A DNA stretch of 63,208 nucleotides from assembly GCA_017960525.1 (NCBI GenBank), contig JAGCZA010000001.1, forward strand, positions 1 to 63,208. Direction: 5' to 3'. A program made the translations under genes and the position numbers. Source of the stretch: Prevotella sp. (GTDB taxonomy: Bacteria; Bacteroidota; Bacteroidia; Bacteroidales; Bacteroidaceae). The notes under the pieces are model-generated. The model did not search any database, was not told where the DNA came from, and saw only the letters and a program-made list of their open reading frames with translations. Below are positions 7,051-57,866 of the stretch, piece after piece; the first letter of the stretch is position 1, and each line of letters begins with the position of its first letter.

Positions 7051-7811
7051 AGAATGCTCTCGCCCTCGATGTACTGCGAAGTGAAGAGGTGCTCACCATC
7101 GTAGACCACGTAACTGAACTGGCTGATCCAGTCGCCAAGGATGATGACACGGGCCTTCTTCGTCAACTGAAGGTCTACGTCTATGTGGCGATGCCCGTAG
7201 ATGAAATAGTCCACGTTGGAGTGATACTGGATATACTTCTTGGTGTAGAGCAACAGGTGCTCACGGTCCTCGCCCATATAAGGAGGCTCCTCACCGTTGG
7301 GACGCTTCATCCGAGAGTGCTTGGCCCACGTCTGGCCGAACCACATTCCCCAGCGGGGGTGCAGGGCGGAGAAAGCCACCTGGCAGAGGCGGTTGTGGAA
7401 TATCCATTTGATGAACTTGAACCGTGGGTTAGGGTCTCCAAGGCCATCGCCGTGGGCAAGGAAGAATATCTTGCCGTAGAGTTCGGTGGTGAGCGGCTTC
7501 TTGTGGAGAATGACGCCGCACTCCCGCTCCAAGTAGTCGTAGGCCCAGATGTCGTGGTTGCCGGTGAAGTAGTGCACCTCGACCCCCATATCGGTCAGCT
7601 CGGAGAGTTTCCCCAGGAAGCGGGTATAGCCCTTTGGCACCACATAGCGGTATTCGTACCAGAAGTCGAACATATCGCCCAGCAGATAGACCGCAGCCGC
7701 CTTTTCCTTGATGTTGTCAAGGAAGCGCACGAGCCGCCGCTCCTGCATCCGTCCGTGCTCGACGGCCCAGGAACCCAGATGGGCATCGCTTAAAAAGTAA
7801 ATCTTTTTCAA
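7047..7811 (-). CDS. lpxH: UDP-2,3-diacylglucosamine diphosphatase (LpxH-type)
   Basis: A 254-residue calcineurin-like phosphoesterase, probably releasing lipid X (2,3-diacylglucosamine 1-phosphate) in lipid A synthesis at the inner membrane. Metal ligands are visible in order: SDAHLG (D9, H11), GDMFDFW (D46), GNHD (N85, H86), AHGDG (H120) and YGHRH (H207, H209). The start is odd: the codon at 7809-7811 is TTG on the minus strand and lies exactly at the edge of the inverted repeat at 7811. The next in-frame Met is residue 22, beyond the catalytic DAHLG, so an upstream start is required. It is probably transcribed with the genes at 8290-10087. Confidence 0.88.
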   Translation of the reverse strand: MKKIYFLSDAHLGSWAVEHGRMQERRLVRFLDNIKEKAAAVYLLGDMFDFWYEYRYVVPKGYTRFLGKLSELTDMGVEVHYFTGNHDIWAYDYLERECGVILHKKPLTTELYGKIFFLAHGDGLGDPNPRFKFIKWIFHNRLCQVAFSALHPRWGMWFGQTWAKHSRMKRPNGEEPPYMGEDREHLLLYTKKYIQYHSNVDYFIYGHRHIDVDLQLTKKARVIILGDWISQFSYVVYDGEHLFTSQYIEGESIL

Positions 7812-8279
7812 AATGAGAAATGATAAATGAAAAATATGATTACATTTGTACGCTAAAACGCTATGGTCTTCCGATCTTTGCTTTTAGGGTTTTTACGGAA
7901 CTGACCAACATTCTGATAAGTTCTTCACAATCGTTGTGTATTGAATTAAATTCTTTTTCATTCAAGTAATCTCCTTCATAAAGTTTCTTCAGCCAATAAG
8001 ACGTTTCGTCGGCCTCTTTCAGAGCAATGTTCTGTTTACTGAGATAATCCAATGTACTTTGTGCATTACGACTTTCGGTTAAATTGGCTCCGATGCTGGT
8101 GCCGCTCCTCAGCACTTGCTTAGAAATGATAAATTCTTTTTTTTCCGAGACGAGATACTTATGCATTTTGACAATCCTTTCGCCAAATTCATCAGCCTTT
8201 TCCAATAAGATGTTCCGTCTCCTCTCCATACAGATAGTTTTCAAAACTAATCATATTTCTCATTTATCATTTCTCATTT
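7811..8279. repeat. Stem-loop element: inverted heptamer arms enclosing a four-helix gene
   Basis: The left arm (7811-7841) and right arm (8249-8279) are each 31 nt. As reverse complements they match at 30 of 31 positions. The arms are built of 7-nt units of the type AAATGAN. The left arm extended to 32 nt (7811-7842) matches the 5' arm inside the GH43 gene (44181-44212) at 29 of 32 positions, and the right arm matches that gene's 3' arm (44243-44274) at 27 of 30. The loop holds the four-helix gene. The element fills almost the whole gap between the MIP18 gene (stop codon from 8290) and lpxH (start at 7811). Confidence 0.8.
7861..8229 (-). CDS. Four-helix bundle protein (23S rRNA IVS / S23 family)
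   Basis: A 122-residue, all-helical protein. The start at 8229 gives MERRRNILLEKADEFG, close to the usual family opening; an upstream TTG at 8244 adds five residues. Conserved features are RSGTSIGANLTES and the region around LSKQNIALKEADETSYWLKKL. This family (TIGR02436/PF05635) was first seen in intervening sequences that interrupt 23S rRNA as stem-loops in Leptospira and Coxiella; its function is unknown. Here the gene likewise sits in the loop of a 31-bp inverted repeat, but between protein genes. It looks distinctly AT-rich beside its neighbours, which suggests acquisition. Confidence 0.9.
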   Translation of the reverse strand: MERRRNILLEKADEFGERIVKMHKYLVSEKKEFIISKQVLRSGTSIGANLTESRNAQSTLDYLSKQNIALKEADETSYWLKKLYEGDYLNEKEFNSIHNDCEELIRMLVSSVKTLKAKIGRP

Positions 8280-8289
8280 ATCGTTTACC

Positions 8290-23458: not shown

Positions 23459-24325
23459 ATGAATCCAATCTTGATTGCAGTGATTGTTCTTGGAGGCATC
23501 GCTCTCATAGCGGCCGTTGTGCTGTTTGCGGCCTCGAAGAAGTTTGCTGTGTTTGAAGATCCGCGCATCGCAAAGGTCAACGGGCTGCTGCCTGGTGCCA
23601 ACTGCGGCGGCTGCGGCTTCGCCGGATGTGGCGGTATGGCCGACGCGCTGGTGAAAGGAGCCGACGCCGGCTCGCTGGAGGGGCTGAACTGCCCTGTGGG
23701 CGGTGCCGACGTGATGGGCCAGGTGGCCGATCTGCTGGGTATGGCCATTGCCAACGGCGAACCGAAGGTGGCCGTCGTCAGGTGCAACGGCTCGTGTGAG
23801 CACCGGCCCCGCATCAACGAGTATGCCGGACTGCGCACGTGTGCCGCAATGCACGCCTGCGGTGCCGGCGAAACACTCTGCGGATTCGGCTGTCTGGGCT
23901 GTGGCGACTGCGTGAAGGCTTGCCAGTTCGACGCCATCCGAATGAATCCGGAGACGGGACTGCCCGAGGCCGACGAAGAGAAATGTACGGCCTGCGGCGC
24001 CTGTGCAAAGGCCTGTCCGCGCCAAATCATCGAACTGCGGAAGAAGGGGCCGAAGGGCCGCCGCGTGTTCGTCTCGTGCGTGAACAAGGACAAGGGTGCC
24101 GTTTCGATGAAGGCCTGCAAGGTCTCCTGCATCGGCTGCGGCAAGTGCGCCAAGGAGTGCCAGTTCGAGGCCATTACCATCGCTGGCAATGTCTCCTACA
24201 TCGACCCGGAGAAATGCCGGCTGTGCCGCAAGTGCGTGAAGGTCTGCCCCACGCACGCCATCGTAGAGGTGAACTTCCCGAAACCAATTAGTAATGGAAG
24301 TGAGAGTGAAGTGAAAGAGGAGTGA
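23459..24325 (+). CDS. rnfB: Rnf complex subunit B (ferredoxin-like, multi Fe-S)
   Basis: A 288-residue electron-input subunit. An N-terminal membrane helix (about 4-24) is followed by the Cys cluster NCGGCGFAGC (C49, C52, C57, C78), then 4Fe-4S motifs around C141-155, C176-186, C220-234 and C253-263. It passes electrons from reduced ferredoxin toward the membrane Rnf complex. The last ten residues (NGSESEVKEE) are encoded by the repeat arm starting at 24297, so a repeat element has apparently formed the native C-terminus. Next gene in the operon is rnfC. Confidence 0.95.
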   Translation: MNPILIAVIVLGGIALIAAVVLFAASKKFAVFEDPRIAKVNGLLPGANCGGCGFAGCGGMADALVKGADAGSLEGLNCPVGGADVMGQVADLLGMAIANGEPKVAVVRCNGSCEHRPRINEYAGLRTCAAMHACGAGETLCGFGCLGCGDCVKACQFDAIRMNPETGLPEADEEKCTACGACAKACPRQIIELRKKGPKGRRVFVSCVNKDKGAVSMKACKVSCIGCGKCAKECQFEAITIAGNVSYIDPEKCRLCRKCVKVCPTHAIVEVNFPKPISNGSESEVKEE

Positions 24326-24429
24326 AAGTGAAGTGAAAGCGACGTTACTCCTATATCAGCAAAACTATCTTCACTTTCACTCCCCCTTCACTCCCCCTTC
24401 ACTCCCTTTTCACTCCCTTTTCACTCCCC
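24297..24429. repeat. Inverted repeat element between rnfB and rnfC
   Basis: The 5' arm (24297-24340) is made of GTGAAGTGAAAG-type units. The 3' arm (24369-24429) is five tandem units of TCACTCCC plus C or T bases with an 11-bp period. The arms are largely complementary, with a 28-base loop. The 5' arm encodes the RnfB tail, and the 3' arm ends 13 bases before the rnfC start. Confidence 0.8.
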
Positions 24430-24442: not shown

Positions 24443-25813
24443 ATGACTGCAAAAACATTCCGTATAGGTGGTATCCACCCCGAAGAGAACAAACTCACCC
24501 ACGAGGTGGCCACGCAGATAGCCCCGCTGCCCAAGCAGGCCATCTTCCCGCTGAGCCAGCACATCGGTGCGCCCACGAAACCCGTGGTGCAGAAGGGCGA
24601 CAAGGTGAAGGTGGGCACGCTCATCGCCGAAGCCGGCGGTTTCGTCTCCGCCCCCATCTTCTCAAGCGTCAGCGGCACGGTCGTCAAGATTGACACAGCC
24701 ATCGACGCCACCGGCTACCGCAAGCCCGCTATTATTATTAATGTGGAGGGCGACGAATGGGAAGAGTCCATCGACCGCTCGGACACGTTGGAGTTGGTGA
24801 AGGACCACCCCGAACTGACGCCCGAAGAAATCGTGACGCGCATCAAAGACGCCGGTGTCGTCGGTATGGGCGGCGCCTGCTTCCCCACATTCATCAAACT
24901 CACCCCGCCGCCCACAGCCAAGGCCGAGTGCGTCATCATCAACGCTGTGGAGTGCGAACCCTACATCACCGCCGATTACCGCCTGATGATGGAGCACGCC
25001 GACGAAATACTGGTGGGCCTGGAGTTGCTGATGAAGGGCGCAAAGGTCACCAAAGGCTACATCGGCATTGAGACAAACAAGCCCAAGGCCATCGCCCTGC
25101 TCGAGGAGAAGGTAGAGTCACTCAACTCTCAACTCTCAACTCTCAACATTGAAGTCGTCCCTCTGAAACAGCGCTACCCACAGGGCGGCGAAAAGCAGTT
25201 GGTCGACGCCGTCATACGCCGCCAAGTGCCCGCCCCGCCCGCCATTCCCGTGAACGTGGGCGCCATCGTCCAGAACGTCGGCACAGCCTTTGCCGTCTAT
25301 CAGGCCGTGATGAAGCACAAGCCGCTGTTCGAGCGCTACACCACCGTCACCGGCAAGCGCCTGCAGAATCCCGGCAACTATCTCGTGCGTATGGGCACGC
25401 CGATGCAAGACCTTATCGACCTCTGCGGCGGTATGCCTGAGGGCGACAACAAGTTGCTGGCCGGCGGCCCGATGATGGGCAAGGCGCTCACATCGACCGA
25501 AGTTCCCATCTGCAAGGGCACAAACTCGGTGACCATCCTCAGTAGCGACGATGCCCGCCGCAAGGAGCCTGACGCCTGCATCCGCTGCGCCAAGTGCGTG
25601 GGCGTCTGCCCGATGGGCCTGGAGCCTTATCTGCTGGCAAAACTCTCAGAAGTGAAGAACTGGGAGCGTGCCGAGCGTGAGGACATCGTCTCGTGCATAG
25701 AGTGCGGCTCCTGCCAGTTTACCTGCCCTGCCCATCGGCCCCTGCTCGACAACATCCGTCAGGGCAAGGCCACTGTTATGGGAATCATTAGGAGCAGAGC
25801 AGCGAAGCATTAG
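24443..25813 (+). CDS. rnfC: Rnf complex subunit C (NADH-oxidoreducing, Fe-S)
   Basis: A 456-residue peripheral subunit that binds FMN and NADH. The N-terminal barrel-sandwich (FRIGGIHPEENK; PAKKGD-like QKGDKVKVGTLIAEAGGF) precedes the Rossmann part with VGMGGACFPTFIKL. Two 4Fe-4S motifs are near the end, CIRCAKCVGVCP (about 379-390) and CIECGSCQFTC (about 418-428). Residues 225-235 (ESLNSQLSTLN) come from a heptamer repeat at 25115-25147 and resemble peptides in PurL, the acyltransferase and the pectate lyase. The insertion lies between EEKV and IEVVPLKQRYPQGG, a surface region before a conserved block. Confidence 0.95.
   Translation: MTAKTFRIGGIHPEENKLTHEVATQIAPLPKQAIFPLSQHIGAPTKPVVQKGDKVKVGTLIAEAGGFVSAPIFSSVSGTVVKIDTAIDATGYRKPAIIINVEGDEWEESIDRSDTLELVKDHPELTPEEIVTRIKDAGVVGMGGACFPTFIKLTPPPTAKAECVIINAVECEPYITADYRLMMEHADEILVGLELLMKGAKVTKGYIGIETNKPKAIALLEEKVESLNSQLSTLNIEVVPLKQRYPQGGEKQLVDAVIRRQVPAPPAIPVNVGAIVQNVGTAFAVYQAVMKHKPLFERYTTVTGKRLQNPGNYLVRMGTPMQDLIDLCGGMPEGDNKLLAGGPMMGKALTSTEVPICKGTNSVTILSSDDARRKEPDACIRCAKCVGVCPMGLEPYLLAKLSEVKNWERAEREDIVSCIECGSCQFTCPAHRPLLDNIRQGKATVMGIIRSRAAKH
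25115..25147 (+). repeat. In-frame heptamer array in rnfC
   Basis: About four tandem CTCAACT units (period 7) from 25121, preceded by GAGTCA. Translated in frame it gives ESLNSQLSTLN. This is the 3'-arm type of the KSLN family; no 5' arm is evident. Confidence 0.85.
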
Positions 25814-28207: not shown

Positions 28208-28238
28208 TACCGTCATCACGTTATAACGTCATAACGAA
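28206..28238 (+). repeat. TAACG-type repeat between rnfE and rnfA
   Basis: It contains the palindrome CGTTATAACG (28218-28227) and CATAACG units like those upstream of rnfE. It fills the 37-base gap before the rnfA ATG at 28245. Confidence 0.7.
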
Positions 28239-28244
28239 AAAAAT

Positions 28245-32001: not shown

Positions 32002-33165
32002 TTAGCCGGCGTTGCTCACTTTCATTTTGTTGCGCAATGGATTGGCATACATCGTGAGGATGCACTGGCGCAGGAAAGGCTCGTCTTTTTGCGGCAGACT
32101 TATCTTGGAGATTTGGCCCTGCAAATATTGCTCGAATCGGCTCTTGTCAGCGTCGGTATAGTTTTCCGCCTGCTTGTTGCCGCCATCCAAAAGGTCGGCA
32201 GCGATGTAATTGCAAGGATACAGACGGTAACCCTTGAATATCTCTACGTTCATGCGCTGAGCCAATTCTGCAAAGAACTCATGGCGGGGCAGACTCTCCA
32301 GTTCGGCCAGCCACTGGTTGACAGGCGTGCCGCAATGGTAATGGACTCGCCCCTTGTAGCCCAGAATACCCGTCCGCATATTGTCCAAGTCGTCCTGCTT
32401 GCTCTTCTTGAAGGCTGGATTGTCACGTTTCTGCTGCATCTCCTGCGCCTTCAGATAGTCGCAAGGGTCATATTCATAACTGATGGTGAGGGGCACAATG
32501 TCGAGTTCTTTCAGTTCACCTCCCATAGCCAGCATCTTCAGCACGGCATCGTGGGTGCGGTCGTCACTGTCTTTCGCCCTGCCCTCACGCTGGGCAATCC
32601 AGATGTTCTCCCGTTTCTGTGTGACGGCATAGTGGATGTAGCGGCTCATCAGTTGGCTTGAAGCAAGCATCTCCCTCGGCGAGAGGCCGCGCCTGACGGT
32701 GAAGGCCTTGTTCATTCTCACCAACCGTTTAATCCAAGGATAGATGAGGAGGTTGTCGCCGATACCTATCTCAACCGTAGTCGGATAACCGCTTTCGACC
32801 AGCATCACATCGAGAAAGGCTGAGTCGAGGACGATGTCACGATGGTTGGAGATAAAGGTGTACCGCTGGTTGAGCGTTGAGGGTTCAGCGTTGAGAGACT
32901 TCACCTCTGTATCATCGAAAGTGCAGCCGTCAGTATGCTTCCTGATGATGTACTTCACGACAGGCTTCATGAAACGTATTTGGAAGTCGAGCGGCGTCTT
33001 CACGCCAGTAAAAGCCAGACGCAACAAGCCATTGCGCAGCCACTTGGGCAGCCAAGGCGCAAAGCCTTTCATCACTGCATTGAAATGGCGGTCGTTGAGC
33101 AGGCCCTCAAAGGCCTCCTTCATTTCCTCCGGCTCGTATGGCCTGATGTCGTCAAACTCGTTCAT
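32002..33165 (-). CDS. Lysophospholipid acyltransferase (PlsC-like)
   Basis: A 387-residue enzyme taken from the ATG at 33165 (MNEFDDIRPYEPEEM), 13 bases after ddl; a longer frame begins inside ddl. FISNHRDIVLDSAFLDV contains the NHRD catalytic block of this Bacteroidetes branch (spacing differs slightly from the classic H-x4-D), and AQREGRAKDSDDRTHDAVLKM is the acyl-acceptor/phosphate motif. It likely acylates lysophosphatidate or a related lipid at the membrane. Residues 89-99 (KSLNAEPSTLN) are encoded by a repeat at 32869-32901, just upstream of the catalytic motif, giving an in-frame insert between DTEV and QRYTFISNH. Confidence 0.88.
   Translation of the reverse strand: MNEFDDIRPYEPEEMKEAFEGLLNDRHFNAVMKGFAPWLPKWLRNGLLRLAFTGVKTPLDFQIRFMKPVVKYIIRKHTDGCTFDDTEVKSLNAEPSTLNQRYTFISNHRDIVLDSAFLDVMLVESGYPTTVEIGIGDNLLIYPWIKRLVRMNKAFTVRRGLSPREMLASSQLMSRYIHYAVTQKRENIWIAQREGRAKDSDDRTHDAVLKMLAMGGELKELDIVPLTISYEYDPCDYLKAQEMQQKRDNPAFKKSKQDDLDNMRTGILGYKGRVHYHCGTPVNQWLAELESLPRHEFFAELAQRMNVEIFKGYRLYPCNYIAADLLDGGNKQAENYTDADKSRFEQYLQGQISKISLPQKDEPFLRQCILTMYANPLRNKMKVSNAG
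32869..32901 (-). repeat. In-frame KSLN repeat in acyltransferase gene
   Basis: On the minus strand this reads AAGTCTCTCAAC followed by CTCAAC units at 7-bp intervals, translated KSLNAEPSTLN. It is the same junction and frame as the copies in purL, rnfC and the pectate lyase gene. Confidence 0.85.
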
Positions 33166-33178
33166 GGCTGTGTTGAGA

Positions 33179-37876: not shown

Positions 37877-37902
37877 CACCACCGTCGGCCGGTCCTCTCT
37901 GA

Positions 37903-37965
37903 GAGTTAGAAGGTATATAACTGGGAGTTAGAAGGTATATAACTAGGAGTTAGAAGGTATATAAC
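37903..37965 (+). repeat. Three 22-bp direct repeats upstream of purL
   Basis: The unit GAGTTAGAAGGTATATAACT plus two bases starts at 37903, 37925 and 37947, exactly 22 bp apart. Each unit contains a weak dyad (AGTTA...TAACT). The array ends 35 bases before the purL -33 element. Confidence 0.9.
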
Positions 37966-38086: not shown

Positions 38087-41000
38087 ATGATTTTCTTTTT
38101 CAAGACCCCACAACAGAGCGTGATTGCCACACAGGTGGACCATCACCTCGATGCAGAAGAAGTGAACAAACTGTGCTGGCTCTACGGCGGTGCCACCCTC
38201 TTGGAGGGCGATAGCGTAAAGGGCGGATTCATAGGCCCGCGCCGCGAAATGGTGACTCCCTGGAGCACCAACGCCGTGGAAATCACCCAGAATATGGCTA
38301 TGCAGGGCATTGTGCGCATAGAGGAATACTTCCCGTTTAGTGTTCAGAGTTCAGAGTTGAGCGACGTTACATCTGACAGTGATGTAAAGTCTCTAAACTC
38401 TCAACACTCAACACTCAACTACGACCCTATGCTCCAGCGCAAGTATGAGGGACTGGACCAAGGCATCTTTACCATCAATATCAATCCGGAGCCTATCAAG
38501 CACGTGGAAGACCTGGAGGCATACAACGAGCAGGAAGGTCTGGCTCTCTCGCCCGAGGAGATAGACTATCTGCACGGGCTGGAGAAGCAGAACGGGCGTC
38601 CGCTCACCGACAGCGAAATCTTCGGCTTCGCCCAGATTAACAGCGAGCACTGCCGCCATAAGATTTTCGGTGGCACCTTCATCATCGACGGCAAGGAAAT
38701 GGAGTCGTCGCTCTTCGCCCTTATCAAGAAGACCACGCAGGAGAACCCCAACCAGATTCTCTCGGCCTACAAAGACAATGTGGCTTTCGCTCAGGGGCCG
38801 AAAGTGGAGCAGTTCGCCCCTGCCGACCAGAGTACGGCTGACTGGTTCCGCGTGAAGGAGATAGACAGCGTGATTTCGCTGAAGGCCGAGACCCACAACT
38901 TCCCCACCACCGTAGAGCCTTTTAACGGCGCGGCCACCGGCACAGGCGGCGAGATACGCGACCGTATGGGCGGCGGCACAGGCAGTTGGCCCATCGCCGG
39001 CACAGCCGTCTATATGACGGCCTATCCGAGGCTGGAAGACCGCGACTGGGAGAACATCCTCCCCGTCCGCGAGTGGCTCTACCAGACGCCGGAGCAAATT
39101 CTCATCAAGGCCAGCAACGGTGCCAGCGACTTCGGCAACAAGTTCGGCCAGCCCCTCATCTGCGGCAGCGTCCTCACCTTCGAGCACCAGGAGCAAGGTC
39201 CCGTATGTTGCGATACCATCGCAACAAACCAGACCAAGTACGCCTACGACAAAGTGATTATGCTGGCCGGAGGCGTAGGCTACGGCACCCGCCGCGACTG
39301 CCTGAAGAAGGAGCCGCAAAAAGGCAACAAGGTTGTTGTCGTGGGCGGCGACAACTACCGCATCGGTCTGGGCGGCGGCAGCGTCTCCAGCGTAGATACT
39401 GGCCGCTACGCCAGCGGCATCGAACTGAACGCCGTACAGCGTGCCAACCCAGAAATGCAGAAGCGTGCCTACAATCTGGTGCGCGCCCTCTGCGAAGAGG
39501 ATGTAAACCCCGTGGTCTCCATCCACGACCACGGCAGCGCCGGCCACCTGAACTGCCTCTCCGAACTGGTGGAGGAATGTGGCGGCAGCATCGATATGAC
39601 AAAACTGCCCATCGGCGACCAAACTCTCTCATCGAAGGAAATCATTGCCAACGAGAGCCAGGAGCGTATGGGACTGCTCATCGACGAGCACCATCTGGAA
39701 CACGTGCAGCGCATTGCCGAGCGCGAGCGCGCCCCAATGTATGTGGTTGGCGAGACCACTGGCGACGCCCACTTCTCCTTCGTACAAGGCGACGGCGTGA
39801 AGCCCTTCGACCTCGACGTCAGCCAGATGTTCGGACACTCGCCCAAAACCATTATGCGCGACAATACCGTGGAGCGCCACTACGCCCCGGTGGAATATGA
39901 GAAATTAGAAATGAGAAATGAGAATCAAGCGCAGCCATCTGCTCCTGAAACTAACCATATTTCCCATTTCTCACTTCTCACTTCTTACTTAGAGCGCGTG
40001 CTCCAGTTAGAAGCCGTAGCCTGCAAAGACTGGCTGACGAATAAGGTGGACCGCTCTGTGACGGGCAAGATAGCCCGCCAGCAGTGCCAGGGCGAACTGC
40101 AACTGCCGCTCTCCGACTGTGGTGTGGTGGCCCTCGACTATCAGGGCCGCGCTGGCATCGCCACCGCTATCGGCCACGCCCCACAGGCAGGACTGGCCTC
40201 GCCCGAATCCGGCAGCGTGCTCTCCGTAGCCGAAGCCCTTACCAATCTGGTTTGGGCACCGTTGGGAAGAGGTGGCAGGAAAGACGAGCCGCTCGACTTC
40301 GTAAGTCTCTCAGCCAACTGGATGTGGCCCTGCCGCTCGCAGGAGGGCGAGGACGCACGCCTCTACCGCGCCGTAAAGGCCCTCTCCGACTTCTGCTGTG
40401 CGCTCCACATCAACGTGCCCACGGGCAAGGACTCGCTCTCGCTCTCGCAACAATATCCTAATGGTGAGAAGATTATCTCGCCAGGGACGGTCATCGTCTC
40501 TGCTGGAGGCGAGGTTTACGACATCAAGAAAGTGGTCAGCCCCGTGCTGGTGAACGACCACCGCGCCTCGCTCTACCACATCGACTTCTCCTTCTGCCCG
40601 CAACGGCTGGGTGGTTCGGCCTTCGCGCAGAGTCTGGGCCGTGTGGGCGACGACGTACCCACGGTGGAGAACCCCGAATACTTTGCCGATGCCTTCAACA
40701 CCATACAGGAACTGATTAAGAAGGGCTGGATTCTGGCCGGACACGACATTTCCGCCGGTGGTCTCATCACCTGTCTGCTGGAGATGACGTTTGCCAACAC
40801 TCGCGGCGGACTGCACATCAACCTGCACGACCTCTGTATGGACGGCGACATCGTGAAGACGCTCTTCGCCGAGAACCCAGGCGTGGTCATCGAAGTGAGC
40901 GACGAGCACAAACTGGAGTTCCGCGAGTTTATGGAAGAACGCGGCATCGGCTTCGGCAAGATAGGCTACCCGGTGGAGGACAGCCGCTCACTTGAAATCG

Positions 41001-42055
41001 TCTGTCCCGTATGCTGCGATAACATCACAGCAGACAAGACAGAGACCATCACCCTCGACATCGACCATCTGCGCGACGTGTGGTACAAGACCAGTTATCT
41101 GCTGGACCGCCGCCAGTCGATGAACGGCAAGGCCCGCGAGCGCTACGAGAACTACAAGCTGCAGCCGCTGCAGATGAAGCTGCCGCGTGGCTTCAAGGGC
41201 ACGCTGGCCGGACTGGGCCTGCCCGTGAGCGGTCCCAGAAAAGCCAAGGCTGCCATCATCCGCGAGAAAGGCACCAACGGCGAGAGGGAAATGGCCTGGA
41301 GCCTCTATCTGGCCGGCTTCGACGTGAAGGACGTGATGATGACCGACCTCATTACAGGCCGCGAAACCCTCGACGAGGTGCAGATGATTGTCTTCTGCGG
41401 CGGCTTCTCCAACAGCGACGTGCTCGGTTCGGCCAAGGGCTGGGCTGGCGCTTTCCTCTACAACCCGAAGGCCAAGGAGGCTCTCGACCGCTTCTACGCC
41501 CGTCCCGACACTCTCTCGCTGGGCATCTGCAACGGTTGCCAACTGATGGTGGAACTGGGATTGTTGAGTGATAAGAGTTTAGAGTTGATCAGTTCTGCTG
41601 AAAAAGAAAAGTCTCTCAACACGCCAAAGATGCTCCATAATGATTCGCATAAGTTTGAGAGTGGCTTCATTTCGTTGAACATCCCAAAGAACAATAGTGT
41701 GATGTTCGGCTCGCTGAGTGGCAGCAAACTCGGCATTTGGGTGGCCCACGGTGAAGGCAAGTTCCATCTGCCAGGCCAGGAGAGCGACTACAACGTCATT
41801 GCGAAGTACAACTACCACGGCTATCCCGCCAACCCCAACGGCTCGGACTTCGACGTGGCCGGCATTTGCTCCGCCGACGGGCGCCACCTGGCTATGATGC
41901 CCCATCTGGAAAGGGCCATCTACCCCTGGCAGTGCGGCTGGTATCTGCGTGGCCGCCGCCGCGACGAGATAACCCCCTGGCTGGAGGCTTTCGTCAACGC
42001 AAGAAAGTGGATTGAGCATAATGGACAATGGTCAATGGACAATGGTCAATTATGA
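38087..42055 (+). CDS. purL: Phosphoribosylformylglycinamidine synthase (large, with repeat-derived inserts)
   Basis: A 1322-residue FGAM synthase of purine synthesis; related single-chain enzymes are nearer 1230-1300. Blocks include the N-terminal domain, NSEHCRHKIFGG, AETHNFPTTVEPFNGAATG and a C-terminal glutaminase with GICNGCQLM (Cys1148) and PHLERAIYP (H1273, E1275). Four repeat-derived segments are visible: near 84-111 (ends KSLNSQHSTLN), 606-635 (KLEMRNE...HISH), about 1160-1180 (ends EKSLN), and the last residues (NGQWSMDNGQL). All keep the frame and lie between conserved blocks (for example before YDPML and before LQLEAVACKDW). The stop overlaps the next start (ATGA). Confidence 0.96.
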   Translation: MIFFFKTPQQSVIATQVDHHLDAEEVNKLCWLYGGATLLEGDSVKGGFIGPRREMVTPWSTNAVEITQNMAMQGIVRIEEYFPFSVQSSELSDVTSDSDVKSLNSQHSTLNYDPMLQRKYEGLDQGIFTININPEPIKHVEDLEAYNEQEGLALSPEEIDYLHGLEKQNGRPLTDSEIFGFAQINSEHCRHKIFGGTFIIDGKEMESSLFALIKKTTQENPNQILSAYKDNVAFAQGPKVEQFAPADQSTADWFRVKEIDSVISLKAETHNFPTTVEPFNGAATGTGGEIRDRMGGGTGSWPIAGTAVYMTAYPRLEDRDWENILPVREWLYQTPEQILIKASNGASDFGNKFGQPLICGSVLTFEHQEQGPVCCDTIATNQTKYAYDKVIMLAGGVGYGTRRDCLKKEPQKGNKVVVVGGDNYRIGLGGGSVSSVDTGRYASGIELNAVQRANPEMQKRAYNLVRALCEEDVNPVVSIHDHGSAGHLNCLSELVEECGGSIDMTKLPIGDQTLSSKEIIANESQERMGLLIDEHHLEHVQRIAERERAPMYVVGETTGDAHFSFVQGDGVKPFDLDVSQMFGHSPKTIMRDNTVERHYAPVEYEKLEMRNENQAQPSAPETNHISHFSLLTSYLERVLQLEAVACKDWLTNKVDRSVTGKIARQQCQGELQLPLSDCGVVALDYQGRAGIATAIGHAPQAGLASPESGSVLSVAEALTNLVWAPLGRGGRKDEPLDFVSLSANWMWPCRSQEGEDARLYRAVKALSDFCCALHINVPTGKDSLSLSQQYPNGEKIISPGTVIVSAGGEVYDIKKVVSPVLVNDHRASLYHIDFSFCPQRLGGSAFAQSLGRVGDDVPTVENPEYFADAFNTIQELIKKGWILAGHDISAGGLITCLLEMTFANTRGGLHINLHDLCMDGDIVKTLFAENPGVVIEVSDEHKLEFREFMEERGIGFGKIGYPVEDSRSLEIVCPVCCDNITADKTETITLDIDHLRDVWYKTSYLLDRRQSMNGKARERYENYKLQPLQMKLPRGFKGTLAGLGLPVSGPRKAKAAIIREKGTNGEREMAWSLYLAGFDVKDVMMTDLITGRETLDEVQMIVFCGGFSNSDVLGSAKGWAGAFLYNPKAKEALDRFYARPDTLSLGICNGCQLMVELGLLSDKSLELISSAEKEKSLNTPKMLHNDSHKFESGFISLNIPKNNSVMFGSLSGSKLGIWVAHGEGKFHLPGQESDYNVIAKYNYHGYPANPNGSDFDVAGICSADGRHLAMMPHLERAIYPWQCGWYLRGRRRDEITPWLEAFVNARKWIEHNGQWSMDNGQL
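38335..38419 (+). repeat. In-frame KSLN-family stem-loop in purL
   Basis: The 5' arm (38335-38362) is four 7-nt units of GTTCAGA type. The 3' arm begins AAGTCTCTAAAC (38387) and continues as CTCAACA-type heptamers to 38419. The loop holds its own palindrome, TTACATC...GATGTAA (38368-38388). Translated: SVQSSELSDV then KSLNSQHSTLN. Confidence 0.88.
39901..39990 (+). repeat. In-frame KLEM/HISH-family stem-loop in purL
   Basis: The 5' arm (39901-39924) is heptamers GAAATTA, GAAATGA, GAAATGA. The 3' arm (about 39956-39990) is CATTTCT/CACTTCT units. Over a 24-nt stretch the arms are complementary at 19 positions. Translated as KLEMRNENQ...NHISHFSLL. It shares peptide, frame and orientation with the GH43 copy at 44181. 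Confidence 0.85.
41563..41620 (+). repeat. Eroded KSLN-family element near the purL 3' end
   Basis: The 5' arm of four heptamers (GTTGAGT, GATAAGA, GTTTAGA, GTTGATC; 41563-41590), then a loop, then the conserved junction AAGTCTCTCAAC at 41609-41620. Translated LSDKSLEL ... EKSLN. Only a short 3' arm remains. Confidence 0.7.
42021..42048 (+). repeat. Heptamer array encoding the PurL C-terminus
   Basis: Four units alternating ATGGACA and ATGGTCA, followed at once by the purL stop and the next gene's ATG. It encodes NGQWSMDNGQL with the adjoining bases. Confidence 0.85.
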
Positions 42056-43622: not shown

Positions 43623-44714
43623 ATGAACAAAATTACTAGACTTTTTCTGTGTGGCTTCATAGCCATGATGGCCTTTGCTTCTGCAACGGCTCAGTCCAAC
43701 CACCGCCCACGTCCTCGCCGAATGGCCTACCAGACCGACACCGTGATGGTGCACGACCCCGTTTTGGCCTGGGAAAACGGCACCTACTATCTGCTCTCAA
43801 CCGGCAACGGCCTGCAGTGGGCCACATCGAAAGACCGCCAGTCGTGGATAGTGCAGCCCACGCCCTTCATAGAGAATCTGCCACAATGGACACGCGATTC
43901 CGTGCCCGGCTTCACCTCCCACGTGTGGGCGCCCGACATCATCCGCTGGCACGACCGCTGGCTGCTGGCCTACAGTTGTTCCACTTTCGGCAAGAACACC
44001 AGCGCCATCGGCCTGATGAGCGCCGACCACCTAAATGGACAGTGGCGTGACGAGGGCTGCATAGTGGCCTCAAAAGAGAAGCGTGACCAGTGGAACGCCA
44101 TCGACCCGGCTTTCGTCGTCGACGACAACGACCAACTTTGGATGACCTGGGGCTCGTTCTGGGACGGCATACAGATGGCTAAATTAGAAATGAAGAATGA
44201 AAAATATGATTACCCCCTTGTGCAGAGCACTACGCCAGACAGTCATCATATTTCTCATTCCTCATTTATCATTTCCCCACAGAAGACCATTGCCCGCCGC
44301 TACAGGCCTGGCGACAAAAATGCAGCCGAAAACCCCACGTCGAAATTTGCGGGTCGCAACGCCATCGAGGCGCCGTTCATTCTGAAGCACGGCGGATGGT
44401 ACTATCTCTTCGTGAGTTGGGACTACTGCTGCCGAGGGGCACAGAGCAACTACCGCGTGGCCGTGGGACGGTCGAAGACGGTAGACGGCCCTTACACCGA
44501 CCGCGACGGCAAACCGATGACCGAGGGCGGCGGTACCATTTTCATAGAGGGCGACAAGCAGGAGTTTGAGGCCGCCGGTCATTGCGCCGCCTACGACCTC
44601 CCCACAGGCGAGACCATCTTCATCTGCCACGGCTATTCCACAAAACTCAACGGTGCCAGCATCCTCATCCAAAGAAAAATAGTGTGGACCAACGACGGCT
44701 GGCCCACACTATGA
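43623..44714 (+). CDS. GH43 arabinanase-like glycosidase, secreted
   Basis: A 363-residue exported enzyme with a signal peptide (about 1-24). The GH43 acidic triad is visible in VHDPVLAWENGTYYLLS (Asp), WNAIDPAFVVDDNDQLWMTWGSFWDGI (Asp) and RNAIEAPFILKHGGWYYLF (Glu). The pattern fits endo-1,5-alpha-L-arabinanase or exo-arabinanase members. Residues about 187-217 (KLEMKNE...HHISHSS) come from a repeat element and split the usual run between QMAKL and TIARRY, in a loop on the propeller. The three catalytic acids are intact. Confidence 0.9.
   Translation: MNKITRLFLCGFIAMMAFASATAQSNHRPRPRRMAYQTDTVMVHDPVLAWENGTYYLLSTGNGLQWATSKDRQSWIVQPTPFIENLPQWTRDSVPGFTSHVWAPDIIRWHDRWLLAYSCSTFGKNTSAIGLMSADHLNGQWRDEGCIVASKEKRDQWNAIDPAFVVDDNDQLWMTWGSFWDGIQMAKLEMKNEKYDYPLVQSTTPDSHHISHSSFIISPQKTIARRYRPGDKNAAENPTSKFAGRNAIEAPFILKHGGWYYLFVSWDYCCRGAQSNYRVAVGRSKTVDGPYTDRDGKPMTEGGGTIFIEGDKQEFEAAGHCAAYDLPTGETIFICHGYSTKLNGASILIQRKIVWTNDGWPTL
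44181..44274 (+). repeat. In-frame KLEM/HISH-family stem-loop in GH43
   Basis: The arms at 44181-44212 and 44243-44274 are 32 nt each and complementary at 27 of 32 positions, with a 30-nt loop. The 5' arm is 29/32 identical to the arm beside lpxH (7811-7842). It encodes KLEMKNEKYDY and HHISHSSFI in the same frame and orientation as the purL copy. Confidence 0.88.
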
Positions 44715-48693: not shown

Positions 48694-50505
48694 CTACATC
48701 AGCCGTCCACGCTCAGCCAGCGTGTCGTAGTTGTTGTTCAGGTTGCGCCAGTCCACGCGGCCCTGCGTGGGTATGGCGTTGATGTATTTCTCGATGTTCG
48801 TGTAGCCGTCGCCGTTCAGGTCGCCGTTGGCATCGTTGGGGTCGTTGGGGTTCAGGCCGTTGGCGCGCTCCCACTCGTCGGGCATACCGTCCAGGTCGCT
48901 GTCCTTGTAGGGCTGCCAGTCCTTGTAGACGGGATAGCCGCCCATCTGGCGCGGGTCGGTGATGATGCCCTGCTTGTACGAGTCGTTGCCCAGTCGGCGG
49001 TACTTGAACGTGCCCTCATCGTTCTGGCTCTTCGGGTGCAGCCCCCACATATCGCCGTAGGGCGTGAGGGTTGAGTTGAGAGTTGAGGGTTGAGAGTTGA
49101 GAGACTTTGCCTTCTTTGACCCTGAACCCTTAACTTTGAACTGCTTCTCGTAGTCAGGCACATAGTAGGCCACGCCCGTGCGCACTTCCTCGCAGATGCG
49201 CTGGTCCACGATGTCGCGGCAGGGCACGGTGGCTCCGGCATTGCTGAGCACCCAGTCGAAGGCCCGCTCTGCACCCATAATGGTGACGGGAGGCATCTGG
49301 AAAGGCTCGTCAGAACGCATCAACGCCAGTTCCGTGGCGTCCATGTCGCCGTCCTTGTCGGCAGTCTGAATGCCGCCGTTCCAGTTGTCCTTCGTAATCT
49401 CAGGGAAGCCCTCCATCACGTTGCCCACGGCATAGATGCGGCCAAACTGCTTGAAGGGGAACAGTCCCTGCGAGCGGCTTTCGCTCTTGATGATGCGATG
49501 GCCCACGGGCGAGTCTTTCGGCGTCAGCGGCCCGGGCTTGTAGTAGTTGTTGATGAAGTTCGACATAGTGGTGTACTCGCCGCCGTCGGCAGTACGGTGC
49601 ACCCAGTTATAGACGATGTTGTTGATGAAGTTGAACACGCCGCCCCACCCTATCGACGGGTTGCGGCCCGTATTGTCGGCCCACAGGTTGCGCATAAACG
49701 TGGTGTTCTCGCCGCCGATGGTCGAGCCAAACGAGTGGTTCCACGTGTCGAGGGCCTTGGCCGAAATGGTGTTCTGTATGGTGACGTTCACCGTCGGCTC
49801 CTTGCGCTTGTCCTTCCCGTCCTTCAGGTCGAACATGTGGCGGTAGAACGAGATATTCTCGTCCAGACCCCACTCGCACGAGCAGTGGTCTATCATGATG
49901 TTGCCCACAGGGTTGCCGCCAAACGAGTCCTCGCGGTGCCACACCAGCGTCTCGCCGCGACGGAAGCGCATGTGGCGCACAATGACGTCGTGCGTATCCA
50001 CCTGGAACGACTCGCCGGCGATAATCACGCCGTCGCCCGGAGCCGTCTGACCGGCAATGGTGATATACGGTGCACGCACGTAGATGGGCGACTTCAGGCG
50101 GATAATGCCCGAGACATTGAACACCACGATGCGGGCGCCACCCTGTTCACAAGCCCAGCGGAACGAGCCAGGGCCGCTGTCGTTCAGGTTCGTCACCGTG
50201 AGCACCTTGCCGCCGCGTCCGCCGAAGGTGTACATACCGCCGCCCTCAGCACCCGGGAAAGCGGGAATCTTGGCCTGCCGCAGGTCGTATGGGCGCGAGG
50301 CCCAGGGCACGAAGGGTCGGCCCTGCTTCGCCTCCTCCACCACGATGGGGAAGGCTTTCTCCCAGGCAGAGCCGCTGTGGGCGGCCCACTGCTTCTGCAG
50401 CGAGTCGATGAGGTGTTTGGCCTCGTCGGTCAGTTGCGGGTACTGGGCGAGAACAGCCGTTACAGAAAACAGCAGCGTGGCAGCAAAGGTGAGTAGTCTT
50501 TTCAT
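48694..50505 (-). CDS. PL1-like pectate lyase, secreted
   Basis: A 603-residue exported protein with signal peptide (MKRLLTFAATLLFSVTAVLA). The beta-helix starts at FPGAEGGGMYTFGGRGGKVL (about 79) and includes NDSGPGSFRWACEQGGARIV, ITIAGQTAPGDGVIIAGE and IMIDHCSCEWGLDENIS, as in Bacteroidetes PL1 enzymes acting on pectate. Residues about 456-477 are repeat-derived and end KSLNSQPSTLN, just before LTPYGDMWG. The C-terminus has Ca-loop repeats (DSDLDGMPDEWERANGL; DANGDLNGDGYTNIEKYI). It is the first gene of a two-gene operon with GH5. Confidence 0.9.
   Translation of the reverse strand: MKRLLTFAATLLFSVTAVLAQYPQLTDEAKHLIDSLQKQWAAHSGSAWEKAFPIVVEEAKQGRPFVPWASRPYDLRQAKIPAFPGAEGGGMYTFGGRGGKVLTVTNLNDSGPGSFRWACEQGGARIVVFNVSGIIRLKSPIYVRAPYITIAGQTAPGDGVIIAGESFQVDTHDVIVRHMRFRRGETLVWHREDSFGGNPVGNIMIDHCSCEWGLDENISFYRHMFDLKDGKDKRKEPTVNVTIQNTISAKALDTWNHSFGSTIGGENTTFMRNLWADNTGRNPSIGWGGVFNFINNIVYNWVHRTADGGEYTTMSNFINNYYKPGPLTPKDSPVGHRIIKSESRSQGLFPFKQFGRIYAVGNVMEGFPEITKDNWNGGIQTADKDGDMDATELALMRSDEPFQMPPVTIMGAERAFDWVLSNAGATVPCRDIVDQRICEEVRTGVAYYVPDYEKQFKVKGSGSKKAKSLNSQPSTLNSTLTPYGDMWGLHPKSQNDEGTFKYRRLGNDSYKQGIITDPRQMGGYPVYKDWQPYKDSDLDGMPDEWERANGLNPNDPNDANGDLNGDGYTNIEKYINAIPTQGRVDWRNLNNNYDTLAERGRLM
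49071..49141 (-). repeat. In-frame KSLN-family stem-loop in pectate lyase gene
   Basis: Read on the minus strand: 5' arm of four heptamers of GTTCAGG type (49141-49114), loop, conserved junction AAGTCTCTCAAC, then CTCAACT-type heptamers. A 24-nt comparison of the arms gives 19 complementary positions. Residues 467-477 are KSLNSQPSTLN. Confidence 0.88.
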
Positions 50506-50612: not shown

Positions 50613-50678
50613 AATCATTTTGGACGAACCAAACCCACACTTTGGACGAACCAAACTCCCACTTTGGACGAACCAAAC
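50613..50678 (-). repeat. 22-bp-period array, core GTTTGGTTCGTCC (3 units)
   Basis: On the minus strand three exact cores (50666-50678, 50644-50656, 50622-50634) are spaced 22 bp apart with spacers AAAGTGGGA, AAAGTGTGG and AAAATGATT. It is oriented with the PL1 gene and lies 44 bp upstream of its -33 element. Confidence 0.9.
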
Positions 50679-50697
50679 TCCGAACACCATTGCGAAC

Positions 50698-55620: not shown

Positions 55621-57866
55621 ACCGCACCTGTTGCTACAGCAGATGGCTTGCCACGGCCCTGACGGTCGTGGCAGCTGTCTTTTCGGCCTATGCCGCCTAC
55701 GTGCCCCGCGACGTGGTGTGGACCACGCAGAGCCGCAACAGCAGCGAGTCGATGCCCTGCGGCGGCTGCGACATCGGTCTCAACGTGTGGGTGGAAGGGG
55801 GCGACTTGCTCTTCTACGCCCAGCAGAGCGGTTGGTTCGACGAGAACAATACGCTCCTGAAGGCAGGCCGCTGGCGCCTCCGAGTGGACGGCCAGCCCTT
55901 CAACGGCAGCGACTTCGAGCAACGGCTGTGCCTCGACGAGGGCTGTATATATATAAGAGGTGGAGGTATCGAGGTGCGGCTGTGGGTCGACGTGGAGCAG
56001 CCCGTGGTGTTTGTTGCGTTGGTAACGCGACATACGAGACGGGCGGTGCTGAGTTACGAGAGTTGGCGCTACCGCGACCGGCCCGTCACCAAGGCCGAGT
56101 GCCAGCAGTGCTCCTACAAATGGCTTATCCCCAAGGACTGCACCACCTTTGCCGACAGCATCGAGGCAAACGGCAACTCCCTGGCCTTCACCCATAAGAA
56201 CCGCACGGAGACGGTCTTCGACTTCACTGTCAGCCGTGAGCACCTCGATGCCATTAAGGACAGCCTCTACAACCCCATCGGCGGGTTGCTTATGAAAGGG
56301 ATGATGCACGCGCCTGGCTTCCAGTTTGCAGGCACGAGTAAGGGAGAATATGCGGGCACCGACTATCAAGCGTGGAACTTTTCGTGCGACAACCTGCGCT
56401 CCTCCGCCATCATCATCGACCTGCGCTATCTGCGCCACCATCTCTACGAAGACACGATGGTCGACGGATGCGGCACCGTAGCCCCATACGCTTTCCCAAC
56501 CATAAAAAGCAGCGTCTCACGTAAGCGCAGCGCCAAATGGTGGCACCAGTACTGGCAGCGCAGTTGGATAGTGACCGACAACAAGGAGGCCGCCACGATG
56601 GTGCGCAACTACGAACTGATGCGCTATATGCTGGGCTGCAACGCTCGTGGCGAGTGGCCCACGAAGTTCAACGGCGGACTGTTCACCTTCGACCCCGTCT
56701 ATGTCGACTCCACGACGGCCTTCACTCCCGACTACCGCAAGTGGGGCGGCGGCACGATGACGGCACAGAACCAGCGGCTGGTCTACTGGCCGCTGCTGAA
56801 GAACGGCGACTACGACGTGCTGCAACCACAGATAGACACCTACCGTCGTATGCTGCCCAACGCCATCGCCCGCACACGCCACTACTGGGGTCACGACGGC
56901 GCGTCGTTTACTGAGCAGATAGAGAACTTCGGCCTGCCAAACCCTGCCGAATACGGCAAGCACAAGGAGGGCGACGACCTGGGCGTGGAGCGCAACGCCT
57001 GGTTGGAGTATGAGTGGGACACGGCCCTGGAGTTCGCATTGATGGAGAGTTTAGGGTTGAGAGATGAGAGTTTAGAGTTGAGAGACGAGGGGTCGGGGCT
57101 TGCTGCTGAGATTTTGCGCTTCTTCGATGAGCACTACCGATGGCAGGCGAAGAAGTTGGGGGCGAAAGACTTGGACGAGAACGGACACCTCATCATCTAC
57201 CCGGGGTCGGCTTGCGAGACCTATAAGATGGCCTACAACCCGTCGAGCACTATCGCCGCCCTGCGTACCGTGGCGGCTGCCGTCGGCGACACGGCATTGC
57301 TGAGTCGTCTGCCAGAACTGCCACTTACAACAACCGCCCAAGGCGACACCTGCATCGCCCCCGCCGTAGCCTGGGCAAGGGTGCAGAACACAGAGACGCC
57401 GCAACTCTACCCCGTATGGCCCTGGCGCATCTACAGCGTGGGCCGGCCAGGCATTGACATCGCACGCAACACCTACTGGAAAGACCCGCACGCACTCGCC
57501 ATGCGCAGCACAAAGGGCTGGAAGCAGGACAACATCTGGGCCGCTTGCCTCGGACTGACCGACGAAGCGCAGCGGCTGAACCTGGAGAAACTCTCCGACG
57601 GCCCCTACCGCTTCACGGCCTTCTACGACCCTGGCTTCGACTGGGCGCCCGACCACAACCGTGGCGGAGCCGGCATGGTGGGCCTGCAGGAAATGCTGTT
57701 GCAGGAGACCCCCGACGGCCAACCCATCCTCTTCCCCGCCTGGCCCCGCCAGTGGAACTGCCGTTTCCGCCTCCACACCCTCAGTGGCCGCACCATAGAA
57801 GCCGCCATCACCAATGGCGTCATTACCACAACAGAAAACCAAGCCACAAAAACCTTGCACAGATGA
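55617..57866 (+). CDS. DUF5703-domain protein, probable secreted glycosidase
   Basis: A 749-residue exported protein from the ATG at 55617 (MNRTCCYSRWLATALTVVAA). The N-terminal domain (YVPRDVVWTTQSRNSSESMPCGG; GDLLFYAQQSGWFDENN) is the DUF5703 type. The middle and C-terminal parts (WWHQYWQRSW; RYMLGCNARGEWPTKFNGGLF; NRGGAGMVGLQEMLLQE) resemble the (alpha/alpha)6 barrel of GH95-like enzymes. It is likely a glycosidase of unknown substrate. Residues 477-491 are a heptapeptide repeat (ESLGLRD ESLELRD E) encoded by 7-nt DNA units. It overlaps thrC by four bases. Confidence 0.85.
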   Translation: MNRTCCYSRWLATALTVVAAVFSAYAAYVPRDVVWTTQSRNSSESMPCGGCDIGLNVWVEGGDLLFYAQQSGWFDENNTLLKAGRWRLRVDGQPFNGSDFEQRLCLDEGCIYIRGGGIEVRLWVDVEQPVVFVALVTRHTRRAVLSYESWRYRDRPVTKAECQQCSYKWLIPKDCTTFADSIEANGNSLAFTHKNRTETVFDFTVSREHLDAIKDSLYNPIGGLLMKGMMHAPGFQFAGTSKGEYAGTDYQAWNFSCDNLRSSAIIIDLRYLRHHLYEDTMVDGCGTVAPYAFPTIKSSVSRKRSAKWWHQYWQRSWIVTDNKEAATMVRNYELMRYMLGCNARGEWPTKFNGGLFTFDPVYVDSTTAFTPDYRKWGGGTMTAQNQRLVYWPLLKNGDYDVLQPQIDTYRRMLPNAIARTRHYWGHDGASFTEQIENFGLPNPAEYGKHKEGDDLGVERNAWLEYEWDTALEFALMESLGLRDESLELRDEGSGLAAEILRFFDEHYRWQAKKLGAKDLDENGHLIIYPGSACETYKMAYNPSSTIAALRTVAAAVGDTALLSRLPELPLTTTAQGDTCIAPAVAWARVQNTETPQLYPVWPWRIYSVGRPGIDIARNTYWKDPHALAMRSTKGWKQDNIWAACLGLTDEAQRLNLEKLSDGPYRFTAFYDPGFDWAPDHNRGGAGMVGLQEMLLQETPDGQPILFPAWPRQWNCRFRLHTLSGRTIEAAITNGVITTTENQATKTLHR
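57045..57089 (+). repeat. In-frame heptamer array in DUF5703 gene
   Basis: Six 7-nt units (GAGAGTT, TAGGGTT, GAGAGAT, GAGAGTT, TAGAGTT, GAGAGAC), so a 21-nt super-period. Translated ESLGLRD ESLELRD. It is the 5'-arm type of the KSLN family; no complementary 3' arm was found. Confidence 0.8.

What the first reader, a model, noticed from the sequence alone, without database searches (positions are those of the whole stretch)
44181..44274. One palindromic element family is both protein-coding (GH43, PurL) and flanks a four-helix gene
The GH43 insert has 32-nt arms complementary at 27/32. Its 5' arm is 29/32 identical to the arm at 7811-7842, and its 3' arm is 27/30 identical to the one at 8250-8279. 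In between those two arms lies a four-helix (S23/IVS) gene instead of a 30-nt loop. A third copy is in purL (39901-39990). GH43 and PurL share peptide, frame and orientation (KLEM[R/K]NE ... HISH[S/F]S). Rickettsia palindromic elements also insert in frame in unrelated proteins; a Bacteroidetes equivalent linked to an S23-type gene would be new to me. Inference: the gene-bearing copy may be the parent and the short copies miniature derivatives.
Basis: partly seen in the sequence, partly recalled or inferred. Interest (0 to 1): 0.92.

Follow-up and report, generated by a model that had tools for sequence, protein, structure and literature searches.

The report
Four-helix genes inside repeat-built mobile palindromes
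Small bacterial four-helix genes of unknown role sit between mirror-image arrays of short repeats, typically 7 letters, and the same arrays without the gene lie scattered through the genome, even in frame inside core enzymes, so they look like a family of mobile DNA.

Summary
Own genome: all 10 detected four-helix (S23, PF05635) genes lie between inverted arms built of tandem repeats, mostly a different repeat for each gene. Over 148 S23 loci, 124 exceed the 99th percentile of 888 control placements; the unit is usually 7 nt. All 14 plasmid loci fetched, mostly cyanobacterial, exceed all 112 of their controls. Gene-less palindromes with the same arms are scattered in the genome; of 21 examined of the window's family, 12 lie in frame in proteins such as PurL, GH43 and IspG. 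Orthologues lack the inserts. Three plasmid comparisons show the gene-bearing unit present or absent, once inside a methyltransferase gene, with no target duplication and about 33-315 bp of host lost. Arms co-vary with their protein. Best reading: an S23 mobile element related to rRNA intervening sequences and cyanobacterial heptamer hairpins. What moves it is unknown: reverse transcriptase shows no association, Y1 transposase is an exploratory lead.

The parts
7811..8286 (.). Gene-bearing element: arm, S23 gene, inverted arm, between a SufT-like gene (8290-8649) and a metallophosphoesterase gene (7047-7811)
   Evidence: Inverted arms 39/45 complementary; of the 30 genus loci examined 6 have S23 here and 24 do not
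7811..7855 (+). Left arm: AAATGAG-type heptamers plus inner motif TATGATTA
   Evidence: (pair I6)
8235..8286 (-). Right arm, inverted copy of the left arm
7861..8229 (-). S23 / four-helix bundle gene (122 aa)
   Evidence: PF05635 E=1.5e-24; TIGR02436 E=9.7e-29; homologue of PDB 2rld, E=2.5e-34
44181..44275 (+). Gene-less palindrome of the same family, in frame in the GH43 gene (43623-44714)
   Evidence: Arms 27/32 complementary; absent from 30 other GH43 loci, three of which carry other inserts in the same loop
39895..39990 (+). Gene-less palindrome of the same family, in frame in purL (38087-42055)
   Evidence: Absent from the 29 other genus orthologues aligned
38335..38420 (+). Second-family palindrome (GTTGAGA heptamers, inner GACGTTA/GACTTTA), in frame in purL; arms match S23 locus L003 of this genome
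41563..41620 (+). Second-family palindrome in frame in purL
49075..49142 (.). Second-family palindrome in frame in ORF 48694-50505 (minus strand; no Pfam match)
24293..24416 (.). Palindrome whose arms match S23 locus L002 of this genome, at the 3' end of ORF 23459-24325
   Evidence: (pair I9)
25107..25147 (+). Apparent single arm of the second family, in frame in an RnfC-like gene (24443-25813)
32869..32906 (.). Apparent single arm of the second family, in frame in an acyltransferase-like gene (32002-33213, minus strand)
57042..57093 (+). Single arm or degenerate copy of the second family in ORF 55035-57866

Best explanation
It is a mobile palindromic element. The full unit is about 470 bp: an array of 7-nt (in some clades 8-12 nt) repeats, a short inner motif, an S23 four-helix gene of about 120 codons, and the same array inverted. 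Element lineages differ in their repeat, and the two arms of one element stay alike while the repeat drifts. The same arms without the gene, about 60-135 bp, are non-autonomous derivatives dispersed through the genome; those that keep a reading frame open survive inside proteins. SHOWN: architecture; element-specific arms in several phyla; protein-arm co-variation; presence/absence polymorphism; absence of target duplication with host bases lost (three sites); in-frame inserts missing from orthologues. INFERRED: (1) movement uses a DNA hairpin (single-stranded or cruciform) annealing at short matches to the repeat, which would explain why the arm is a tandem array and why host DNA is lost; arm mismatches show no sign of selection for an RNA hairpin; (2) the S23 protein binds and delivers or protects that hairpin, by analogy with its homologue Avd; (3) catalysis comes from elsewhere, host replication/repair or possibly a Y1 (HUH) transposase in trans. 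The confidence below is for the mobile gene-plus-arms unit with derivatives; steps (1)-(3) together I would put near 0.3.
For: All 10 detected own S23 genes bracketed; 124 of 148 loci above control 99%; 14 of 14 plasmid loci (12.5-39) above all 112 of their own controls (max 11.0), including 39/39 perfect arms on a Nostoc plasmid; protein-arm Mantel r=0.384, 0 of 999 permutations, and period 7 in 87 of 88 loci of the GTSIGAN clade against 6-12 in the other main clade; own arms find matching gene-less palindromes, foreign arms rarely; S23 count against heptamer arrays rho 0.41-0.48, forward and reverse arrays r=0.97 over 60 genomes; element inside a DNA cytosine methyltransferase gene that is annotated whole on two homologous plasmids; empty sites for two more elements; host loss about 315, 198-209 and 33 bp, longest direct repeat at junctions 4 nt, which is background; elements at one site keep arm complementarity while repeats diverge, mean 30.6 against 17.4; G.U 119 against A.C 142 arm mismatches, p=0.17; 12 of 21 palindromes of the window family in frame, in Pfam-supported proteins.
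Against: No transposition was observed and no catalytic partner identified. 24 of 148 S23 loci, among them half of the phylum set, lack clear arms; only 65 of 148 true arm pairs exceed the 99th percentile of mismatched pairs (119 the 95th). The S23 locus between cas2 and cas1 scores only 12.5. In one of five elements at one site (L344) the upstream arm fits the downstream arm of another genome slightly better than its own, 30 against 29. Three of 8 S23-negative genomes still carry 32-217 array hits, and all three have a Y1 transposase match. The de novo palindrome count is small and its mirror control is not clean. Co-variation of protein and arm may be only shared descent. The arm-mismatch test cannot exclude an RNA role. 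S23 proteins are only mildly basic (median pI 8.0).
Confidence: 0.75

Rival explanations
1. Retro-mobility: the element RNA hairpin plus S23 (an Avd relative) is reverse-transcribed by an RT acting in trans.
For: PF05635 resembles the Avd protein of diversity-generating retroelements (PMC10053308, passages).
Against: This assembly (94% complete) has no RVT_1 match; 34 of 38 RT-negative genus genomes have S23 (RT-positive 18 of 22, Fisher p=0.45) and array counts do not differ (p=0.82). Arm mismatches show no excess of G.U over A.C.
Confidence: 0.1
2. HUH (Y1) transposase in trans, a REP/RAYT-like system: Y1_Tnp moves the single-stranded hairpins and S23 is an accessory or a passenger.
For: Array counts correlate with Y1_Tnp matches independently of S23 (partial rho 0.38; S23 against Y1 rho 0.02), and the three array-bearing S23-negative genomes are Y1-positive. 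HUH enzymes act on ssDNA hairpins (recalled).
Against: 11 of 25 Y1-negative genomes still have more than 50 array hits; this genome has one weak match. Exploratory test, no correction for phylogeny or multiple tests; no guide tetranucleotide was looked for.
Confidence: 0.2
3. Not mobile: S23 is an RNA-binding regulator of its own hairpin mRNA, and the scattered heptamer palindromes are regulatory stem-loops.
For: RNase III excises the S23-bearing intervening sequence from Coxiella 23S rRNA (PMC4990558, passages); cyanobacterial STRR hairpins have been suggested to raise transcript stability or couple translation (PMC2670836, passage).
Against: Presence/absence with host deletion; inserts inside unrelated proteins; no RNA-strand bias of arm mismatches.
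Confidence: 0.12
4. S23 genes insert into pre-existing heptamer palindromes; the palindromes come from slipped-strand replication or template switching and S23 is a passenger.
For: Solo arrays without S23 exist, and arms co-diverge as copying errors would make them.
Against: Related S23 proteins keep related arms and period, and the whole gene-plus-arms unit is what is missing at three empty sites.
Confidence: 0.12

Closest known systems
23S rRNA intervening sequences (IVS) carrying an S23 ORF
   Same: S23 ORF in the loop of a stem; the Coxiella IVS has tandem heptamers before the ORF (PMC4990558, passages)
   Different: Here outside rRNA genes, several per genome, element-specific arms, gene-less derivatives in frame in proteins
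Cyanobacterial STRR heptamer hairpins
   Same: Usually 7-bp repeats able to form hairpins, function not known (PMC2670836, passage); arms on Nostoc plasmids are such arrays
   Different: Here the arrays bracket S23 genes; no such link appeared in the paper listings and passages I saw
Rickettsia palindromic elements (RPE)
   Same: Short palindromes in frame in unrelated proteins (PMC10969869, passages)
   Different: Arms are tandem heptamers and a gene-bearing form is found; sequences of the two were not compared
TAACTGA and GGGAATC heptamer repeats (Beggiatoaceae; Xanthomonas and Nostoc)
   Same: Dispersed 7-nt tandem repeats, in Xanthomonas often as inverted pairs (PMC4679880 outline and passages; PMC4692102 passages)
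   Different: No S23 partner named in the passages seen; whether S23 genes there carry these heptamers is an untested prediction
MITEs / IS elements
   Same: Inverted ends, gene-bearing and gene-less forms
   Different: No transposase gene in the unit, no target duplication, host bases lost
DGR accessory protein Avd
   Same: Related four-helix family (PMC10053308, passages)
   Different: No RT in this assembly; a template/variable repeat pair was not looked for

Membership tests
S23-type IVS element | S23 (PF05635) ORF | tested here: met
S23-type IVS element | Complementary ends flanking the ORF | tested here: met
S23-type IVS element | Located in a 23S rRNA gene | tested here: not met
   The window copy lies between SufT-like and metallophosphoesterase genes; no Rfam match in six S23 or insert loci
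S23-type IVS element | Excised from RNA by RNase III | not testable with these tools
   Reported for Coxiella in PMC4990558 (passages)
MITE/IS | Inverted terminal repeats | tested here: met
MITE/IS | Target site duplication | tested here: not met
   Three sites, longest direct repeat 4 nt, background
MITE/IS | Transposase in the autonomous copy | tested here: not met
   The only gene between the arms is S23 (window; plasmids)
Rickettsia palindromic element | Palindrome inserted in frame in unrelated proteins | tested here: met
   12 of 21 examined of one family
Rickettsia palindromic element | Sequence homology to RPE families | not tested
   No RPE sequence was compared
Cyanobacterial STRR | Tandem 7-bp repeats able to form hairpins | tested here: met
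Diversity-generating retroelement | Reverse transcriptase present | tested here: not met
   No RVT_1 in this genome assembly
REP/RAYT | Y1 transposase partner | tested here: inconclusive
   Correlated with array counts but absent from 11 array-rich genomes

The most novel reading that the evidence does not exclude
A hitherto unnamed class of mobile DNA, found in many phyla, that carries no catalytic enzyme of its own. A pentameric four-helix protein recognises an array of its own short repeat, and the hairpin is pasted by annealing at short matches to that repeat while host DNA is lost. rRNA intervening sequences, cyanobacterial heptamer hairpins, Xanthomonas GGGAATC pairs and the coding palindromes of the window's genus would all be its footprints, and it is still adding peptides to core enzymes.
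Probability: 0.4. Interest if true: 0.95.

Novelty: new variant of a known kind. Interest (0 to 1): 0.88.

Why it matters
If true it gives one explanation for three old puzzles: why S23 four-helix proteins exist, where rRNA intervening sequences come from, and what spreads heptamer hairpins in cyanobacteria and other bacteria. It supplies a testable gene partner for repeats described without one. It also shows a source of new peptide segments in core enzymes (PurL, IspG, Mfd), and suggests why S23 genes turn up beside cas and other defence genes: as inserted passengers.

Tried and rejected
Reverse transcriptase as mobiliser: no association. RNA-hairpin selection: no G.U excess in 136 elements (119 against 142), nor in 9 coding palindromes (8 against 22) or 7 non-coding ones (5 against 5). 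Classical transposition with target duplication: not seen. Defence-system membership: no PADLOC match for three S23 proteins. Known RNA family: no Rfam match in six loci. De novo census of tandem palindromes: 7 in 567 kb (own, window left out), 1 in 400 kb (four S23-negative genomes), 7 in 400 kb (four S23-rich), but the mirror control gave 3, 1 and 5, so I lean on it little. The first palindrome finder missed the GH43 and purL copies and was replaced. mis-measured loci cut by contig ends (L055, L060, L061, L069 wrongly low), corrected. One search picked wrong reading frames for three GH43 loci and left 11 later-fetched loci out; redone with all 31. One search used too narrow a motif (73 proteins) and was redone as (160 proteins). 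A note says 13 in-frame copies; the right count is 11 plus GH43 = 12.

Ten paper searches, of which I saw listings, showed no paper that links S23 genes to heptamer arms outside rRNA; the library holds no bioRxiv collection and few subscription papers, so this is not proof of absence. Papers opened, as passages only: PMC4679880 (also outline), PMC4990558, PMC2670836, PMC10969869, PMC10053308, PMC10910872, PMC4692102.

Full report
Observation. The three palindromes are present at the stated places and the stated identities are exact. The gene between the outer pair of arms is an S23 / four-helix bundle gene, homologous to PDB 2rld; a profile of eight S23 proteins also finds 2gsc. Both entries have five chains and are named 'uncharacterized'.

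S23 genes of this genome. There are 11 PF05635 matches; two overlapping ones (L009, L011) are parts of one broken gene, and L007 has one internal stop, so 10 genes. Each lies between inverted arms scoring 18-35; 274 random placements in the window reach at most 13.5. The arms are tandem arrays and most genes have a different unit (AAATGAG, GTTGAGA, AGAGGTG, ATTGACC, AGTGAAG, AGGAGTTC and others); L006 is the weakest, with little periodicity.

Generality. Of 150 loci chosen by the S23 match alone, two were dropped for short flanks. Of the other 148, 124 exceed the 99th percentile (13.6) of 888 control placements in the same loci: own 11 of 11 (two are the same broken gene), genus 27 of 29, phylum 15 of 30, named contigs 71 of 78 (titles include Clostridia and Verrucomicrobia). 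The highest control was 31. The best period is 7 or 14 in 94 of the 124 and 8 in 19. True arm pairs beat the 95th percentile of mismatched pairs in 119 of 148 and the 99th in 65. On plasmids, 25 records have an S23 match; I fetched 14, from cyanobacteria, Treponema, Bernardetia and Chlorohelix. They score 12.5-39 against at most 11.0 in 112 placements in the same loci. 13 of 14 also exceed 13.6; the cas2-S23-cas1 locus does not. One Nostoc element has 39/39 perfect arms.

Gene and arms travel together. Across 136 loci, protein similarity and arm similarity correlate (Mantel r=0.384, 0 of 999 permutations): mean arm similarity 0.84 above protein similarity 0.85 (9 pairs), 0.58 at 0.70-0.85 (135 pairs), 0.18-0.20 below 0.40. 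The GTSIGAN clade has period 7 in 87 of 88 loci; 34 loci of the other main clade range from 6 to 12. This may be shared descent and is no proof of binding. Between SufT and metallophosphoesterase, the 30 best-matching genus loci (of 57 genomes with a match) have S23 in 6 and none in 24. Five of the six share the inner motif TATGATTA. There, upstream arms fit their own downstream arm (mean 30.6) better than those of the other genomes (17.4); in four of five the own partner is best, in L344 another genome's is one point better (30 against 29). One S23-less locus there carries a palindrome of another family (L356).

Gene-less derivatives. The AAATGAR pattern has 154 hits against 34 for the reversed pattern; the GTTGAGA pattern has 49 against 8. 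In 631 kb of this genome (window plus 40 stretches), arms of 10 own S23 elements find 16 palindromes; one is the S23 locus itself and two repeat places already counted, leaving 13. Three of the 10 arms find none. Arms of 113 foreign elements find 0.25 on average, median 0, maximum 4, and the highest foreign counts come from the same heptamer type. The window is part of that census and was chosen for the finding, a bias in favour.

In-frame copies. One search examined 51 loci (some overlapping) and listed 21 arm pairs within 500 nt; one is the S23-bearing copy, and two (L329, L330) are poor or different palindromes, kept in the count. Eleven of the other 20 lie in a reading frame open on both sides, and GH43 makes 12 of 21. 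One search listed only part of its hits, so the family total is larger. By inspection all 12 use one frame (KLEMRNEKYDY...NHISHFSSFISHL, with variation). The ten ORFs newly scanned all have Pfam matches, which I read as MFS transporter, GT2, GH2/LacZ, MGH1-like GH, GH67, Mfd, BT_1020/BT_3657-like, PIF1 helicase, fucose pyrophosphorylase and IspG; some inserts lie inside a Pfam match, others between matches. Protein structure was not examined. In purL the inserts at residues 91-111 and 607-629 have no counterpart of the same sequence in 29 other orthologues; the third loop (1164-1176) also has extra residues in two others. Other genomes have other palindromes in the same loops, up to two heptamer-type inserts per gene (38 sequences). 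In GH43, none of 30 other loci has this insert and three have others. By eye, filled loops lack some 5-10 host residues, but at this divergence junctions cannot be placed exactly.

Empty sites. (a) Nostoc N6 and ATCC 53789 plasmids carry the element inside a DNA cytosine methyltransferase gene that is annotated whole on two other plasmids; about 315 host bases are lost and the left junction falls on host CAATTCG, identical to the arm unit. (b) A Nostoc C052 element is absent from the six homologous plasmids examined; 198 bases lost against five, 209 against Halotia. (c) Aulosira laxa: absent from another plasmid of the same strain; 33 bases lost. The longest direct repeat at the three junctions is 4 nt, as in random pairs. 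Three other comparisons (L294, L298, L300) were too diverged to place junctions.

Array load. Over 60 genus genomes, forward and reverse hits of a TGANAAN array pattern correlate at r=0.97. S23 count correlates with array hits: rho 0.48 for the pattern itself, 0.41 with its reversed form, which is also a heptamer and so no clean null. S23-negative genomes have median 2 hits (8 genomes), S23-positive 128 (p=0.007). Against the reading: three of the 8 S23-negative genomes have 32-217 hits. RT shows no association. Y1_Tnp does (partial rho 0.38 given S23), but 11 Y1-negative genomes have more than 50 hits. None of these tests corrects for phylogeny, incomplete assemblies or testing several partners.

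DNA or RNA. If an RNA hairpin were selected, G.U mismatches should exceed A.C on the gene strand; observed 119 and 142 (p=0.17). This favours pairing kept at DNA level, by structure or by copying.

Local arrays. On a 69-kb Dolichospermum plasmid every AATTCGT array found (20-mer, up to 2 mismatches) lies within about 4.2 kb of the S23 element; eight of the 11 array pieces are inside the flanking helicase and methyltransferase genes or a fragment of the latter. Of two compared with a homologous plasmid, one is absent there and one stands where the homologue has similar sequence.

Literature (passages). The Coxiella 23S intervening sequence is an S23 ORF preceded by tandem heptamers, of unclear origin, with mobility once proposed (PMC4990558). 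Cyanobacterial 7-bp STRR hairpins have unknown function (PMC2670836). Xanthomonas heptamers often occur as inverted pairs and were generally not found with mobile elements (PMC4692102). Rickettsia palindromes enter proteins in frame (PMC10969869). I file this as an extension of the S23 intervening-sequence kind, because that kind shares the gene and the paired ends; if S23 is confirmed as a mobility factor without a catalyst, it would deserve a class of its own.

Noticed in passing
L232, L233, L234 (purL of other genus genomes); compare window 25810-25934: A second, non-heptamer kind of palindrome (CCCCCTCGGGGG-type) is also inserted in frame in purL loops; G+C-rich palindromes lie in the window too.
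   Followed up: no
window 13660-13777, 22819-22958, 50616-50681: 22-nt tandem units (TTTGGTTCGTCC...) recur at three places, one of them inverted relative to the other two.
   Followed up: no
window 27544-27636 and 28206-28250: 8-nt tandem repeats (ATAACGAA-like) just upstream of two ORFs.
   Followed up: no
window 37899-37964: Three nearly identical 22-nt tandem repeats upstream of purL.
   Followed up: no
L300, L304, L301 (plasmids): S23 genes sit between cas2 and cas1, between csx2 and cas1, and between drmD and pglX; on another plasmid cas2 and cas1 are adjacent (L319). Insertion may explain the mention of this protein family in a figure legend on CRISPR-linked proteins (PMC10910872, passage).
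   Followed up: partly
L441 (Dolichospermum plasmid pAfl69): Solo AATTCGT arrays cluster only around the S23 element, most of them inside the flanking genes.
   Followed up: partly
60 genus genomes: Heptamer-array load correlates with Y1_Tnp matches independently of S23.
   Followed up: partly
L274, L280: Runs of N at both ends of these short contigs of the window's genome.
   Followed up: no
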